Under the pieces are notes generated by a model, which searched no databases, was not told the origin of the DNA, and saw only the letters and a list, made by a program, of their open reading frames with translations. Below are positions 17,901 to 30,841 of a stretch of DNA of 64,000 nucleotides, piece by piece. The stretch covers positions 992,001-1,056,000 of the forward strand of contig NZ_MWQN01000002.1 of NCBI RefSeq assembly GCF_002024165.1, written 5' to 3'. Numbering within the stretch: the stretch's first letter is position 1; every line of letters begins with the position of its first letter. This DNA comes from Embleya scabrispora (GTDB lineage: Bacteria > Actinomycetota > Actinomycetes > Streptomycetales > Streptomycetaceae). Position numbers and translations under genes: made by a program.

Positions 17901-18214
17901 CCGCACGCGCCTTCGCCGAACCGGTCGGAAACGCCGGTCTGGAGACCGGAGCTGCCCAGCGGAGGTCGAAACCGGATCCCGAGGCACCCCTGAAGCGGCT
18001 CCCATTCGAGCTGACCTGCGCTTTTCTCTCAGGCCGACGGCTGCGGCGCCCAACGTGATCCGGGTTCGCGGACCTTCGCCATCCACCCGCCCACTACATG
18101 CCCGTCCCACAACAGCGGGTCAGGCCTGCTACGCGATGCGCTTCGGATGGGGCGGCTGATCGCGCGCCGGGCGCCGCGTACGCTGTGAGTCCCGAAACGC
18201 GAGGATTCGACACC
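17901..18214. other. Intergenic region with a copy of the dispersed CGAAACCGGATC motif
   Basis: No gene is supported here. Bases 17967-17986 (CGAAACCGGATCCCGAGGCA) recur exactly, in inverted orientation, at 60471-60490 inside the spacer of the large repeat region; two more matching bases and then TGAA also follow in both places after a 2-base length difference. The 12-base core also occurs at 60391 and, inverted, at 60634. Confidence 0.7.
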
Positions 18215-18994
18215 GTGCCGCACAGCCCCGAAGAGCAGATCATCCGCATCGCCGCGACCGCCGGCGAGCCCTTCGGGGTTGCCCTGGGCGGCAGTCGGGG
18301 GCTGGCGCGGCACGGGCTCGTGGATCGGGACGGCGACACCGTCGATTTCGCCCTCGCCACACGTGACGGCAAGCGGCTTGCCGCCGCCCGCGCCGCGATC
18401 GTGGCCGCGTTGGGCGAGGCCGGGTTCGGTGTGGGGGTCGACGGCAAGGCGGCCACGAAGACCCGGGTGCGGCTGAACGTGCGGGCGGTGGGCGCCAAGC
18501 GGGCGATCCCGATGAGCCTGTACGCAGGGCCGCGTCGGCACGAGCCGGTCGTGGTGGGCGACGTGCCCGTGCTGCACCCGGACGACCTCGCCGCCGCGAA
18601 GGTGGTCACCCTCGGGTCGCGGGCCGAACTGCGGGACGCCTTCGACGTGTTCGCGCTCTCCGGCGGCTACGACACCGGGCGGCTGCTCGAACTGGCCCTG
18701 GCCTACGACCCCGAACTGCGGGCCGAGGACTTCCTGACCGGGTTCAAGCACGTCACCGAGCGCGAGGACGCGGAGTTCCGCCGACTGGGGTACACCGTCG
18801 CGCGGGCCGACGAGGTGCGCGCGTACTTCCAGGACTGGTTCGCCGAACTGTCCGCCCGGGGCAGCCGCCCGATCGCCGCCGCGCTCGACCCGGAGGTCTC
18901 GGCCAAACTCGCGCAACTGGCGCAACTGGCGCGACCCGTACAGCCCGCGCAACCCGCGGAGCCGGCGGCGGCCGAAGGGGACCAGGACGCGTGA
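18215..18994 (+). CDS. AbiEii/AbiGii-like nucleotidyltransferase protein
   Basis: A 259-residue protein resembling the nucleotidyltransferase AbiEii/AbiGii toxin family. The N-terminal LGGSRGLARHGLVDRDGDTVDFAL matches the GGTALALHG...DxD core but with a degenerate first Thr and a DTVDF metal site, and HPDDLAAAKVVTLGSRAELRDAFD matches the family's helical second half. The GTG at 18215 has GAGG ten bases upstream; GTG at 18185 is an alternative. No AbiEi-like antitoxin is adjacent, so a toxin-antitoxin role is unlikely. The C-terminus is a low-complexity Gln/Ala/Pro tail. It ends 6 bases from a convergent response regulator. Confidence 0.65.
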   Translation: MPHSPEEQIIRIAATAGEPFGVALGGSRGLARHGLVDRDGDTVDFALATRDGKRLAAARAAIVAALGEAGFGVGVDGKAATKTRVRLNVRAVGAKRAIPMSLYAGPRRHEPVVVGDVPVLHPDDLAAAKVVTLGSRAELRDAFDVFALSGGYDTGRLLELALAYDPELRAEDFLTGFKHVTEREDAEFRRLGYTVARADEVRAYFQDWFAELSARGSRPIAAALDPEVSAKLAQLAQLARPVQPAQPAEPAAAEGDQDA

Positions 18995-19000
18995 GCCGCT

Positions 19001-19678
19001 TCAGGACCGCCGGCCCCCGGGCGTGACCAACCCCGTCTCGTACGCCAACACCACCGCCTGTGCCCGGCTGGACAGGTTCAGCTTGGCCAGCGCCCGGTTG
19101 AAGTGGGTCTTGACGGTGGACTCCGTGACCACGAGCGTGCCGGCGATCTCGGTGTTGGCCAGGCCCTTGCCGACCAGGCGCAGCACCTCCAACTCCCGTC
19201 CGGTCAGCGCGTCCAGGGCCGGCGGGACGTCGTCGTTCGGCGCGGTGGGCGCGGCGGCGACGTACGTCTCGATCAGTCGCCGGGTGACGCTGGGCGCGAA
19301 GAGCATGTCGCCGGCCATCACCGCGTCGATCGCGGCGAGCAGCCGTTGCGGGCCGATCTCCTTGAGCAGGAACCCGGAGGCGCCGGCGCGCAGTGCGGCG
19401 TAGACGTACTCGTCCAGGTCGAAGGTGGTCAACATGACGATGCGGGGCGGGTTGCCCTCGGCGGCGGCGAGGATGCGTTCCGTGGCGACCACGCCGCTCA
19501 CCTCGGGCATCCGGATGTCCATCAGGATCAGTTCGGGTCGCAGCTTCGCCGCCATGTCCACGGCCTCGGCCCCGTCGGACGCCTCGCCCACCACGTCGAT
19601 ACCCGGGGCCGCGCGTAACAGGGCGGCCAGTCCCGCCCGGATCAGGACCTGGTCGTCCACCACAAGTACCTTGGTCAC
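19001..19678 (-). CDS. NarL/LuxR-family response regulator
   Basis: A 225-residue two-component regulator: receiver domain (1-120) with Asp10/Asp9 acidic pocket and phosphoacceptor Asp54 (LILMDIRMPEVSG), and a LuxR-type helix-turn-helix (about 155-215, ALTGRELEVLRLVGKGLANTE). GTG start at 19678. The kinase gene lies 36 bases upstream on the same strand, so they form a cognate pair. Targets are unknown. Confidence 0.93.
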   Translation of the reverse strand: MTKVLVVDDQVLIRAGLAALLRAAPGIDVVGEASDGAEAVDMAAKLRPELILMDIRMPEVSGVVATERILAAAEGNPPRIVMLTTFDLDEYVYAALRAGASGFLLKEIGPQRLLAAIDAVMAGDMLFAPSVTRRLIETYVAAAPTAPNDDVPPALDALTGRELEVLRLVGKGLANTEIAGTLVVTESTVKTHFNRALAKLNLSSRAQAVVLAYETGLVTPGGRRS

Positions 19679-19714
19679 CCCGTCGTTCCTTCCGTCACGT
19701 CGGTCCGAGGCGAC

Positions 19715-21004
19715 CTAGATATCGCCCGTACCCCCGACCTTGCCACCCGACGTGCCGGGCTCGGCCGGGATGGGCAGGACGAGGCCGACCTCGAACCCTC
19801 CTTCCCGGCGCGGTCCGGCGGAGAACGTCCCGCCGTACAGCCTGGCGCGCTCGGACATGCCGATCAGGCCGTGTCCGGACGCGCCCCCGATTCTGCCCGA
19901 ATTCCGGGTCTGTGGGGTCGCGTCGGGGTCGGGTTCTCCACCGTCGTCGCACACCGCTATGCGCAGGCGGGTGGGTTCGTACTCCACCGTCAGTTCCACG
20001 CGCGCGGTGCGGGCGTGTTTGAGCACATTGGTCAGTGCCTCCTGGACGATGCGGTAGGCGCACAACTCGACGCCGGGCGACAGCGGACGGGCGACGCCGA
20101 CCCTGCGAATGGCCACCGCCACCCCCGCCGCCCGGATCCGGCGCACCACGTCGTCCAGGCGGGCCAGACCGGGCGCCGGGTCCATGGTGTGGTCGTCGGC
20201 GGGCCGGTCGGGGCCGCTCACGCGCGCCTCGTCCATGTCCGCGGGGTCGGCGCGCAGCAGCAGCAACATCCGGCGCATCTCGTCCAGCGCCTCGCGGGTG
20301 GTCTCCCCGATGGTGTGCAGCGCCGCCTGGGCGGTGGACGGATCGGAGGTGATCACGTATTCGGCCAGCCCCGCCTGTACCGAGATCACCGAGACGTGGT
20401 GGGCGACCACGTCGTGCAGTTCGCGGGCGATGCGCACCCGCTCGTCGGTGACCGCGCGCCGGGCCCGGGCCTCCTGCTCACGGGCCAGTTTGGCGGTCAG
20501 CAGCGCCAACTGCGCGTTGCGCTCGCCCAGTCGGCGGGCGGCCGTCCCGAACCAGCAGACGACCGGCGGAACGGTCAGGATCTGTCCGACGACGGTGGCC
20601 ATCGAGCCGCCGTCGGCGGCGAGGCCGGCGTAGATCCAGGTGGCGCCCACGGCGGCGATCGCCGCCACCGCGATCCGCACGGGCCGATGCGAGGCGACCG
20701 TGTACAGCGCGAGCAGCGAACCCAGGGAGTTCACCACCGGCCAGTAACCCAGCGCGATGAACCAGATCTGAAGCGTCAGCATTCCGAGGAGCACGGCGAC
20801 GGGGGCGCGCCTGCGGACCAGAAGGGGAAGGTTGATCAGGACGATCAGCACGAAACCGAACGTGTCCGTGTGCCGCCAATTCCCGGTCGGGTCCTCGCGC
20901 GCCAGCAGCAGGCTGACGACCATATCGGCCACCGCCAGCGTCACGTCCACGGCTCGCGGAGGGACACCGGCGGGCAGTCTCTTCCACACCGTTCGGGCCC
21001 GCAT
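19715..21004 (-). CDS. NarL-type sensor histidine kinase
   Basis: A 429-residue kinase with several N-terminal transmembrane helices (about residues 20-150), the HisKA_3 phosphoacceptor segment RIARELHDVVAHHVSV with His197, and a HATPase_c domain (EALTNVLKHA, CDDGG, GHGLIGMSERA). It has no recognisable extracytoplasmic sensor domain, only a membrane-embedded one. It is transcribed with the response regulator downstream. Confidence 0.93.
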   Translation of the reverse strand: MRARTVWKRLPAGVPPRAVDVTLAVADMVVSLLLAREDPTGNWRHTDTFGFVLIVLINLPLLVRRRAPVAVLLGMLTLQIWFIALGYWPVVNSLGSLLALYTVASHRPVRIAVAAIAAVGATWIYAGLAADGGSMATVVGQILTVPPVVCWFGTAARRLGERNAQLALLTAKLAREQEARARRAVTDERVRIARELHDVVAHHVSVISVQAGLAEYVITSDPSTAQAALHTIGETTREALDEMRRMLLLLRADPADMDEARVSGPDRPADDHTMDPAPGLARLDDVVRRIRAAGVAVAIRRVGVARPLSPGVELCAYRIVQEALTNVLKHARTARVELTVEYEPTRLRIAVCDDGGEPDPDATPQTRNSGRIGGASGHGLIGMSERARLYGGTFSAGPRREGGFEVGLVLPIPAEPGTSGGKVGGTGDI

Positions 21005-27885: not shown

Positions 27886-30474
27886 TCACGGACTCGTCGT
27901 CGGCGCCAACAGCCGCTGCCCGCCGCGTTGTCGCACCCGGCGGAAGAAGGAGAGGACACCCGCGCTGCCCGTGCCCCACGCCGGGCTCGACGCGGTGCGG
28001 GAGTTGTCCGGCAGCAGGGGGCGGCGCGCGGTGCCGCCGCTGCGGGCCAGGATCAGGCCGATCACGTCCTCGGCGGCCCGCCACAGTTCGTCGTCGCCGG
28101 TCGCGACGGCGGCGTCCACGAGCAGTTCGCCGATGCCGGACAGGCCGCAACACTGGGACACCAGGCTCATCCGCGGCGCGAGGGAGTGGCACAACCGGGC
28201 GCAGCGCAGGCCCGGTTCGAGCAGCTTCGGGTCCCCATCCGCGACCCCGGCGGCGATCAGCGTCGTACCGATGCCGGCCATGCCGCGGCACCAGGACCCG
28301 AAGTTGCGGGCGGCGCCGGGGAGGGCGGCCGAGGCGAGCAGGTCGGGGGTGCGCGCGGCGAGGTCGGCCAGACCCTCCCGGGCGGCGGCGTGCACGGCCG
28401 GCGCCGCGTGGGGGTCGGTGCGCCGGTAGGCGTCGAGGAAGTACACGATGCCGGCCCGGCCGTGCGCGAACCCGTGGGCGTAGGCCGCACGGGAGGAGGC
28501 CGGGGGCAGCCCGAGTTCGTCGGGTCCAGGCTCGCCGTGGCGGGCCACGAGCAGGCCGGCGCAGTGCGCGGCGGCGGCCAGGTGTACGCCCGCCCGCTCC
28601 GGGTCGCCCGCCGCCCGAGCCGCGGCGGCCAGGAGCAGGTGTCCGGTGCCGCCGCCGGCCGCGCCGCCGATCTGGTCGCCGGTGTCGTCGTAGGGCCTCG
28701 CCGCGGGCGGCGTGTCCGGGGCCGGCGCACCGCCCGGCAGGTCGGCGGCGGCCCAGAGGAAGAGGTCGACGCCGGTGCGGCCGGTGTACAACGTGTCGGA
28801 CAGTTCGCCCAGTTCCGGGTGGGCCGCGGTGCGGTGGGCGAGGTGCGCGACGGCGCCGGCGACGTCCGGGCGGTCGGTGTGGTGCAGCAGTTCGAGGCCG
28901 ACGCCGGCGGCGCCCACGTACAGGGTCAGCGTCGAGCCGGGACGCGGGCCCGAGGCGGCGGGCCAGTCGGCGACACCGCGCACACAGGCGGCGACGGTGT
29001 GGCCGATCACGTCGTCCAGGAGCGCGGCGGTGACCCGGGGCGGCGCCGGCAGTCGGCGGCCGGGCGCCGGTTCGGGCCGCCCGGCCCGCAACCGCCGCGC
29101 GCAGGCGGACCGTTCGGCCGGATCGGGGCTGAGCAGCGCGGCCACCATGGCCCGGACCGGCCGATGGGCGACCCCGGGCAGCGCGGCGGCCAGGCAGGCG
29201 AGCGTACGCTGACGGTTCACCGCCGGATCGGGGTCGACGATCACCGGGTCGAGGCCGGTCAGCGCGTAGTGCAGCGTGGCGCCCAGCGCGTACAGGTCGT
29301 CGACCGGGACCGGCGAGCCGCCGTCCGGATCGGGCGCCGGGGTGTAGCCGGGAGTGCCGCCGGCCGGGCGGCGGGTGTCCAGCGCGCTGATCCCGAAGTC
29401 GACGATCCGGGCGTTGCCGTCGGCGTCCAGCACCACGTTGGCCGGCTTGAGGTCGCACACCACCACGCCGCGCTCGTGGATGCCGTCGAGCACCGCGAGC
29501 AGTCGGCGGGCCAACTCGGAGATCCGTCGGCCGGAGCGGGCGTCGCCCGGGTAGGGGCCGTGGCCGAGCACATCGCGGCGCAGATCGCCGGGGCCACAAT
29601 CGGTGGTGACCAGGTACTCGTCCTCGCCGTGCCGCAGGTGGTCGATCACCCGGGGCACGCCGTCGAGGCCGGACAGCGCGCCCAGCACCGCGCGTTCGTG
29701 CCGCAGCCGGTCCCTGGCGTCCAGGCCGCCGCCGTCCTCCCCGGCGTACGCCCGGGCCTGTTTGATCACCACGCGGTCGCCGGTCGCGTTGTCGAGGGCG
29801 CGGTAGACGTCGCCGTGCGGGGAGCGGGCGATGCCACCGGTGAGCCGGTACCGGCCGCCGATCAGCCGGGCGGTGCGGCCGGGCGTGGGCGCGGCGGCGC
29901 CGAACGGGTCCGCGGCCCAAGGGGGTTGCCGATAGCGCACGGTGGCCCGGCCCGGAAAGCGCTGCCCATCGGGGCCGGTCATCACCAGCGCCGCGTCATC
30001 GCCGCCGCTCGCCCGGAAGGGCCCGTACCGGTAGTAGACGGGAGCGTCGGGCCGGACCCGGCGGTCGCCGAGCACCCGCGGCCCGCCGCGACCGGCCAGC
30101 GCCTCGGCGAGTTCCCGGCCGAGCGCGGCCACGTCCCGCTCGCGCGGGTAGACGGTGATCGCCTTGCCGACGAGGGCGGGATCGCGGACGCCGGCGTTGA
30201 TCTCCTCCAGCACGGCGGTGCCGGCCGCGAACTTGGCCAGGCAGGTGTACCGCAGCAGCACCGGGACCAGCAGGTCCAGCGTCTCGGTGAAGTCCTCGGG
30301 GCGGGTCGAGACGTGCAACTTCCACCCGTGGTCCATCGGAGGCATGCGCGGATCGAACAGGTGGAGCCAGACCGAGTCCGCACGGTGACGTCGATCGTGG
30401 CCGGCGATCAGCGTGTCCAGACGCCGACTCAGGTCCTGTACGGATCCGTCGGGGACCGCCCGCACCTTGCCCAC
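27886..30474 (-). CDS. lanL: LanL-type lanthionine synthetase (lyase-kinase-cyclase) with CCG zinc site
   Basis: An 862-residue three-domain enzyme. Residues 1-205 form the phosphoSer/Thr lyase domain (VYYRYGPF at about 146-153). Residues 205-470 form a Ser/Thr kinase: Lys238 (VVIKQ), catalytic Asp341 (VVCDLKPANV) and DFG Asp359. Residues 495-850 form a LanC-like cyclase: SWCRGMAGIG with Cys729 and SQCCGLSGIG with Cys775-Cys776. Class III enzymes lack zinc ligands, so this is class IV-like, but the usual Cys-His (CHG) is replaced by Cys-Cys, as in the CCG group of LanM enzymes. The GTG at 30474 has AAGGAG six bases upstream; GTG at 30516 is an alternative. The precursor gene lies 199 bases upstream. 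Confidence 0.88.
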   Translation of the reverse strand: MGKVRAVPDGSVQDLSRRLDTLIAGHDRRHRADSVWLHLFDPRMPPMDHGWKLHVSTRPEDFTETLDLLVPVLLRYTCLAKFAAGTAVLEEINAGVRDPALVGKAITVYPRERDVAALGRELAEALAGRGGPRVLGDRRVRPDAPVYYRYGPFRASGGDDAALVMTGPDGQRFPGRATVRYRQPPWAADPFGAAAPTPGRTARLIGGRYRLTGGIARSPHGDVYRALDNATGDRVVIKQARAYAGEDGGGLDARDRLRHERAVLGALSGLDGVPRVIDHLRHGEDEYLVTTDCGPGDLRRDVLGHGPYPGDARSGRRISELARRLLAVLDGIHERGVVVCDLKPANVVLDADGNARIVDFGISALDTRRPAGGTPGYTPAPDPDGGSPVPVDDLYALGATLHYALTGLDPVIVDPDPAVNRQRTLACLAAALPGVAHRPVRAMVAALLSPDPAERSACARRLRAGRPEPAPGRRLPAPPRVTAALLDDVIGHTVAACVRGVADWPAASGPRPGSTLTLYVGAAGVGLELLHHTDRPDVAGAVAHLAHRTAAHPELGELSDTLYTGRTGVDLFLWAAADLPGGAPAPDTPPAARPYDDTGDQIGGAAGGGTGHLLLAAAARAAGDPERAGVHLAAAAHCAGLLVARHGEPGPDELGLPPASSRAAYAHGFAHGRAGIVYFLDAYRRTDPHAAPAVHAAAREGLADLAARTPDLLASAALPGAARNFGSWCRGMAGIGTTLIAAGVADGDPKLLEPGLRCARLCHSLAPRMSLVSQCCGLSGIGELLVDAAVATGDDELWRAAEDVIGLILARSGGTARRPLLPDNSRTASSPAWGTGSAGVLSFFRRVRQRGGQRLLAPTTSP

Positions 30475-30673
30475 GTCCGCTCCTTGCTGTTCCGCGTCGG
30501 GTGGTTCCGAACACACCGCCCGCCGAGCGACCGCGCGTCCGCTCGGGGAGCGTCGTCCACTGGCGCTGTGCGCGGTACGGGGCCGCGCGCCCCGCGCGGA
30601 TGCGTGATCCGTGCGGGGCGGCCGGATCGATGGGCTCCGGGCCGGATCCGGTGTTCGGCGGGTGACGGGCCGG

Positions 30674-30841
30674 TCAGGCCCAGTCGCACCCCACGCGGGT
30701 GGTGGCGGTCACCCACGGGTCGGCCAGACACGACTCGATCCGGCGTTCCGGGTTGGTCTCGTCCTCGAACTCGACCAGTTCCTCCTCGACCTCGACGTCG
30801 AGCGGTCCGGCGTCGCGGATCTCTACCTTCACGGGGCTCAT
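30674..30841 (-). CDS. lanA: Lanthipeptide precursor peptide
   Basis: A 55-residue peptide. The leader (about residues 1-35) is strongly acidic (EVEEELVEFEDETNPE), typical of class III/IV leaders. The probable core is ESCLADPWVTATTRVGCDWA, with Ser37, Thr45, Thr47 and Thr48 as dehydration sites and Cys38 and Cys52 as thiol donors, allowing at most two thioether rings. The ATG at 30841 has AAGGA five bases upstream. It directly precedes lanL on the same strand. No leader peptidase or ABC exporter gene is nearby. Confidence 0.85.
   Translation of the reverse strand: MSPVKVEIRDAGPLDVEVEEELVEFEDETNPERRIESCLADPWVTATTRVGCDWA

What the first reader, a model, noticed from the sequence alone, without database searches (positions are those of the whole stretch)
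27886..30841. Lanthipeptide locus with a three-cysteine (CCG) LanL cyclase and a small precursor
The synthetase has the class III/IV layout (lyase-kinase-cyclase) but, unlike class III, keeps zinc ligands, and unlike the usual class IV Cys-Cys-His it has WCRG plus CCG. Three-thiolate sites are known in the CCG group of LanM enzymes, where they are linked to altered reactivity and selectivity. The 55-residue precursor at 30674-30841 has a compact core with two Cys and four Ser/Thr. No exporter or leader protease is close, and a secreted hydrolase follows.
Basis: partly seen in the sequence, partly recalled or inferred. Interest (0 to 1): 0.7.

Follow-up and report, generated by a model that had tools for sequence, protein, structure and literature searches.

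The report
SflA-type class IV lanthipeptide gene pair
An Embleya bacterium carries an ordinary two-gene set, one small precursor peptide and one enzyme, for a ring-containing peptide of the already known SflA kind; the enzyme's unusual-looking three-cysteine zinc site turns out to be standard for this branch of the enzyme family.

Summary
Window 27886-30516 (-) encodes a class IV lanthipeptide synthetase, LanL (NCBIfam NF038150, 763 bits against a cut-off of 650). Its zinc ligands are Cys743 (WCRG) and Cys789-Cys790 (CCG). Just upstream, 30674-30841 (-) encodes a 55-aa precursor of a named family, 'SflA family class IV lanthipeptide' (NF038148, 89 bits against 25). The genome is an Embleya: the LanL is 94% identical to that of E. 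hyalina. CCG is not an oddity. It is invariant in all readable relatives of this lineage across several actinobacterial genera. On the LanL tree, CCG and CHG enzymes form two clades separated by one change. SflA precursors sit only next to CCG enzymes. A CCG LanL, the curvocidin synthetase CuvL (PDB 8CAR/8CAV), has a solved structure at 39% identity to this one. A 2024 survey (PMC11251773) lists lyase-type 'L-CCC' synthetases. The product is most likely a bicyclic peptide with two non-overlapping methyllanthionine rings (Cys38-Thr45 and Thr48-Cys52), with the leader removed by a protease encoded elsewhere. The locus is a new member of a known kind. Embleya-specific touches are Ser37 next to Cys38 and the C-terminal Trp-Ala.

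The parts
30674..30841 (-). LanA precursor, 55 aa (SflA family): leader about residues 1-37, core from about Cys38; MSPVKVEIRDAGPLDVEVEEELVEFEDETNPERRIESCLADPWVTATTRVGCDWA
   Evidence: translation; NF038148 E=1e-25, 89.4 bits over cut-off 25; ribosome site GGAAGGATCGAA-ATG; homologues upstream of the LanL in relatives
30686..30700 (-). predicted ring B: Thr48-Arg-Val-Gly-Cys52 (inferred)
   Evidence: Thr48, Arg49 and Cys52 invariant in 29 of 29 subtype-1 precursors; ring is inference
30707..30730 (-). predicted ring A: Cys38-Leu-Ala-Asp-Pro-Trp-Val-Thr45 (inferred)
   Evidence: Cys38, Pro42 and Thr45 invariant in 29 of 29; ring is inference
27886..30474 (-). lanL, class IV lanthipeptide synthetase; likely start GTG 30474 (the mechanical ORF reaches 30516; residue numbers in this report count from 30516)
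   Evidence: NF038150 763 bits over cut-off 650; LanKC model 319 under cut-off 575; AAGGAG 5 nt before GTG30474 and the E. scabrispora match begins at residue 15
29875..30399 (-). lyase domain (RamC_N), residues 40-214
   Evidence: Pfam PF25816 E=3.7e-39; Lys66, His68, Lys95 conserved
29101..29814 (-). Ser/Thr kinase domain, residues 235-472; Lys252, Asp355, Asn360, DFG373-375
   Evidence: Pfam PF00069 E=3.6e-16; invariant residues
27886..29025 (-). LanC-like cyclase domain, about residues 498-876
   Evidence: Pfam PF05147; AlphaFold model of the whole protein aligns with CuvL over 826 residues, Z 47
28288..28290 (-). zinc ligand Cys743 (SWCRG)
   Evidence: invariant column
28147..28152 (-). 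zinc ligands Cys789-Cys790 (QCCG)
   Evidence: Cys790 in 27 of 27 CCG-lineage enzymes, His in 32 of 32 others

Best explanation
This is a minimal two-gene class IV lanthipeptide locus of the SflA family in an Embleya. LanL binds the leader of the 55-aa precursor. Its kinase phosphorylates the core threonines, its lyase eliminates phosphate to leave dehydrobutyrines, and its Cys-Cys-Cys zinc cyclase activates Cys38 and Cys52 to add to them. The likely product has two non-overlapping methyllanthionine rings: Cys38 onto Thr45 (the Cys lying N-terminal to its partner) and Thr48 with Cys52. Thr47, and in Embleya also Ser37, may be left dehydrated. The leader is then removed by a protease encoded elsewhere in the genome. 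Family membership, domain layout, zinc ligands and lineage are shown here. Ring connectivity, leader cleavage, export and bioactivity are inferred.
For: Curated equivalog model for LanL and curated SflA precursor model, both over cut-off. Catalytic residues are conserved. The AlphaFold model (pLDDT 81) matches CuvL over 826 residues at 39% identity, Z 47, well above the class III enzymes at Z 24-32. SflA precursors are found next to CCG enzymes in every readable case and next to no CHG enzyme. CCG/CHG needs one change on the tree, also with the lyase-kinase part or the cyclase part alone, SH-aLRT 100. Thr45, Thr48, Cys38 and Cys52 are invariant in 29 precursors, Thr47 is not; a review of Ren et al. 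2020 describes modified SflA as having two non-interlaced rings (PMC8358304). SflA is cut after PDLLK by an unclustered AplP-like protease (PMC10885120), and PDLLK is present in the CCG-lineage precursors of L053 and L072. M1 peptidases are encoded elsewhere in the genome.
Against: No expression or mass data for this locus. The Embleya precursor lacks the PDLLK site, so the leader protease may differ. Ring connectivity was not tested here, and the Ren 2020 paper itself could not be read. Ser37 next to Cys38 occurs only in this genome and E. hyalina among 29 precursors and could alter the rings.
Confidence: 0.88

Rival explanations
1. A LanL with an unusual, hyper-reactive CCG cyclase that is promiscuous like ProcM and modifies several scattered precursors.
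For: Same Cys-Cys-Cys triad as ProcM-type LanM, which reviews link to low substrate specificity (PMC12328550; PMC10027976).
Against: Only one SflA-family precursor in this genome and one in each of the 17 other genomes with hits, next to the enzyme where the LanL was read. Core strongly conserved. CCG is a lineage marker with a single change on the tree. Precursors outside the SflA family would not have been seen.
Confidence: 0.05
2. The rings overlap or run otherwise (for example Cys38-Thr48 with Thr47-Cys52, or a Ser37-derived bridge) so that the product differs from SflA.
For: Ser37 is present only in this genome and E. hyalina; Thr47 is available.
Against: L049 and L050 precursors keep only Thr45 and Thr48 in the core and still pair with a CCG LanL; a review describes SflA rings as non-interlaced.
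Confidence: 0.12
3. A decayed or silent cluster whose enzyme is kept for another reason.
For: No exporter, protease or regulator next to it; no sigma-70-like promoter was found.
Against: Intact frames; dN/dS about 0.23 against E. hyalina, with the precursor kept but for one residue; two-gene clusters without conserved neighbours are the norm in the Streptomycetaceae branch.
Confidence: 0.04

Closest known systems
SflA (Ren et al. 2020, Streptomyces sp. NRRL S-1022; NCBIfam NF038148)
   Same: Precursor scores 89 bits against the family model; shares leader DAGPLD...FED and core CLADPWVTATTR-C with the other family members; protease not in the cluster
   Different: No PDLLK cleavage site; Ser37 where nearly all relatives have Ala; C-terminal Trp-Ala tail, where the PDLLK-bearing relatives end in Leu-Asn-Ser
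CuvL, curvocidin synthetase (PDB 8CAR, 8CAV; 2023)
   Same: Lyase-kinase-cyclase; CQG plus CCG zinc motifs; 39% identity over the whole protein; Z 47
   Different: Separate branch of the CCG clade; WCRG is FCQG there; its own precursor was not compared
VenL and other CHG LanL enzymes (NF038150)
   Same: Class IV domain layout; zinc-dependent cyclase
   Different: Cys-Cys-His triad; other clade; on average 26% (cyclase) and 31% (lyase-kinase) identity; no SflA-type precursor
ProcM-type LanM (class II, CCG)
   Same: Cys-Cys-Cys zinc triad in a LanC-like cyclase
   Different: Unrelated dehydratase; many scattered substrates; the CCC clades were reported as independent, each with its own dehydratase (PMC11251773)

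Membership tests
Class IV lanthipeptide synthetase (LanL) | OspF/RamC-like lyase, Ser/Thr kinase and LanC cyclase in one chain | tested here: met
   Pfam hits; full-length NF038150 match over cut-off
Class IV lanthipeptide synthetase (LanL) | zinc ligands present in the cyclase (absent in class III LanKC) | tested here: met
   Cys743, Cys789, Cys790 invariant in the lineage
LanL subgroup with Cys-Cys-His triad (VenL/CHG clade) | His as third zinc ligand | tested here: not met
   Cys790 in place of His; CuvL and the whole SflA-linked clade also have Cys, so it belongs to the other LanL clade
Class III LanKC | passes the LanKC equivalog cut-off; lacks zinc ligands | tested here: not met
   319 bits against 575; zinc ligands present
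SflA family class IV lanthipeptide | precursor passes NF038148 | tested here: met
   89.4 bits against 25
SflA family class IV lanthipeptide | precursor gene adjacent to a LanL | tested here: met
   199 nt between precursor stop and GTG30474; same arrangement in the relatives
SflA family class IV lanthipeptide | two non-overlapping thioether rings in the product | not testable with these tools
   needs mass spectrometry; conserved residues are compatible
SflA family class IV lanthipeptide | leader cut after PDLLK by an unclustered AplP-like protease | tested here: inconclusive
   PDLLK absent from this leader; M1 peptidases present in the genome

The most novel reading that the evidence does not exclude
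The Cys-Cys-Cys zinc site arose once within LanL together with SflA-type precursors, and the third thiolate is what allows the cyclase to close a ring in which the Cys lies N-terminal to its dehydrobutyrine. The Embleya variant with Ser37 makes a ring pattern different from SflA.
Probability: 0.1. Interest if true: 0.45.

Novelty: new member of a known kind. Interest (0 to 1): 0.18.

Why it matters
It qualifies the usual statement that class IV cyclases are Cys-Cys-His: among the enzymes sampled there are two LanL clades, and the Cys-Cys-Cys one goes with SflA-type precursors. That gives a clean natural pair for testing what the third thiolate does. The Embleya locus itself is a routine addition to the SflA family.

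Tried and rejected
Considered and rejected: class III LanKC (below cut-off, zinc ligands present). A swap of the cyclase domain between LanL clades: the lyase-kinase and cyclase parts give the same CCG/CHG split. No CCG LanM was among the LanMs fetched from this phylum, so a direct tree against ProcM-type cyclases was not made and a swap from LanM was not tested directly. A conserved tailoring gene or hydrolase: no neighbour recurs in most Streptomycetaceae loci, and the LIP hydrolase is found only in E. hyalina. An attenuator hairpin between precursor and lanL: stable, but no more than shuffles (z -0.5). Sigma-70 promoter scan: nothing. The primary papers on SflA, SgbL and Zhang 2012 are not held and no CuvL paper is in the library, so statements about SflA rest on reviews, and the CuvL zinc motif rests on the deposited sequence as aligned. 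The link between SflL and the CCG clade is inferred from the PDLLK leader; the SflL sequence itself was not retrieved.

Full report
What is there. On the minus strand the window holds a GTG-started ORF at 27886-30516 and, 157 nt upstream of it, a 55-codon ORF at 30674-30841. The large protein matches RamC_N (lyase), Pkinase and LANC_like in order and passes the NCBIfam equivalog model for class IV LanL at 763 bits (cut-off 650). The class III LanKC model gives only 319 (cut-off 575). The small protein passes NF038148, 'SflA family class IV lanthipeptide', at 89 bits against a cut-off of 25. So both genes belong to named, curated families.

Host and gene starts. The nearest relative is Embleya hyalina (94% over the LanL), then E. 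scabrispora (75%). The true LanL start is probably the GTG at 30474: AAGGAG lies 5 nt before it, and the E. scabrispora match begins exactly there, at residue 15. The precursor ATG has a clear GGAAGGA site. Against E. hyalina the LanL has dN 0.029 and dS 0.128; the precursor differs by one residue.

Is CCG unusual? No. In an alignment of 27 enzymes of this lineage and 32 others, the first two zinc Cys are invariant in both sets. The third position is Cys in 27 of 27 and His in 32 of 32. Taking in further loci, all 44 loci with both a readable motif and an SflA-type precursor are CCG, and none of 44 CHG loci has such a precursor. Seven CCG loci lack one; two of these (L007, L065) are cut off before the place where it would lie. 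The CHG loci carry about 1.1-1.5 kb of flank on each side, which would cover an adjacent precursor but not a distant one. Some genomes entered by two routes, so the non-redundant set is smaller: 40 CCG with SflA, 5 CCG without, 44 CHG. On a tree of 69 LanL rows CCG/CHG needs one change. It also needs one change on trees of the lyase-kinase part alone and of the cyclase part with the zinc columns left out, SH-aLRT 100 in both. The CCG state is therefore an old, single-change lineage feature within the LanL sampled here; the direction of the change was not tested.

Already in the literature. The AlphaFold model (mean pLDDT 81) aligns best with PDB 8CAV/8CAR, CuvL, the curvocidin synthetase (Z 47.0, 826 residues, 39% identity), far ahead of class III enzymes (Z 31.6 and below). 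The sequence alignment shows that CuvL has CQG and QCCG at the zinc positions. A 2024 survey tabulates lyase-type synthetases with a Cys-Cys-Cys triad ('L-CCC', 8 peptides) and reports three independent CCC subclades, each with a different dehydratase (PMC11251773). The review PMC12328550 mentions the CCG motif once, for LanM.

Product. Across 29 non-identical precursors of the Streptomycetaceae-type core, Cys38, Pro42, Thr45, Thr48, Arg49 and Cys52 are invariant, as are Leu14, Phe25 and Glu26 of the leader. Thr47 is Pro in two, and Ser37 is Ala in 27. Thr45 and Thr48 are therefore the likely ring partners. Because Cys38 precedes all conserved core threonines, its ring would run from Cys38 forward to Thr45, with the second ring Thr48-Cys52. 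Two non-overlapping rings fit what a review says of SflA: 'two non-interlaced thioether rings' (PMC8358304). A second core type, ACVNTCKRTVCSxxPCCPSIV, occurs in Saccharopolyspora, Actinomadura, Actinoallomurus and Amycolatopsis.

Link to SflA itself. SflA is reported to be cut after PDLLK by an AplP-like protease encoded outside its cluster (PMC10885120). The same PDLLK stands in CCG-lineage precursors such as those of L053 and L072, which places SflA in this clade by inference. The Embleya leader lacks PDLLK. The genome has nine M1-peptidase matches elsewhere, which shows only that candidates exist.

Surroundings. No exporter or peptidase gene was found among the flanking genes tested. On one side lies a Pfam LIP-type hydrolase, shared only with E. 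hyalina; on the other a divergent Phosphatase-family gene (PF15698), shared with both Embleya. In the Saccharopolyspora/Actinomadura-type loci an ABC transporter gene of about 630 aa stands divergently just upstream of the precursor in a dozen or so loci. It was not found in the Embleya and Streptomyces loci, apart from one unrelated-looking ABC ATPase in L048.

Promiscuity. Of 391 genomes of the order, 18 have an SflA-family precursor, one each. That is unlike the many scattered substrates of ProcM.

Verdict. A sound reading of sequence, correctly placed, but a new member of a known kind. What would be worth testing is the role of the third thiolate and the effect of Ser37 in Embleya.

Noticed in passing
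G000:C2:1066811-1069429 (L003), about 11 kb beyond the window end: The same genome has a second LanL of the CHG type close by, and a third at C1:1683891-1686743 (L002).
   Followed up: partly
L117, L118, L119, L120, L123: Five LanL enzymes of the CCG clade, just under the NF038150 cut-off, have no SflA-type precursor in the stretch fetched; their substrates were not identified.
   Followed up: no
L064:7665-7832 and L066:7665-7832: Second, divergent precursor copy (core GCADTCKRTVCTLWPCCQTLV) in tandem with the first in two Saccharopolyspora loci.
   Followed up: no
L056:5531-7414, L057:5505-7397 and similar: An ABC transporter gene divergent from the precursor is conserved in Pseudonocardiaceae and Thermomonosporaceae SflA loci but missing from the Streptomycetaceae ones.
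   Followed up: partly
L068:7417-7626: Actinomadura parmotrematis precursor with a duplicated core-like segment (CVSTCVSGFTIRCDG...CVTGATLRCDG).
   Followed up: no
window 18098-18991: Protein with a weak AbiEii nucleotidyltransferase match (25.4 bits, cut-off 22.5), next to a two-component system (19001-21004).
   Followed up: no
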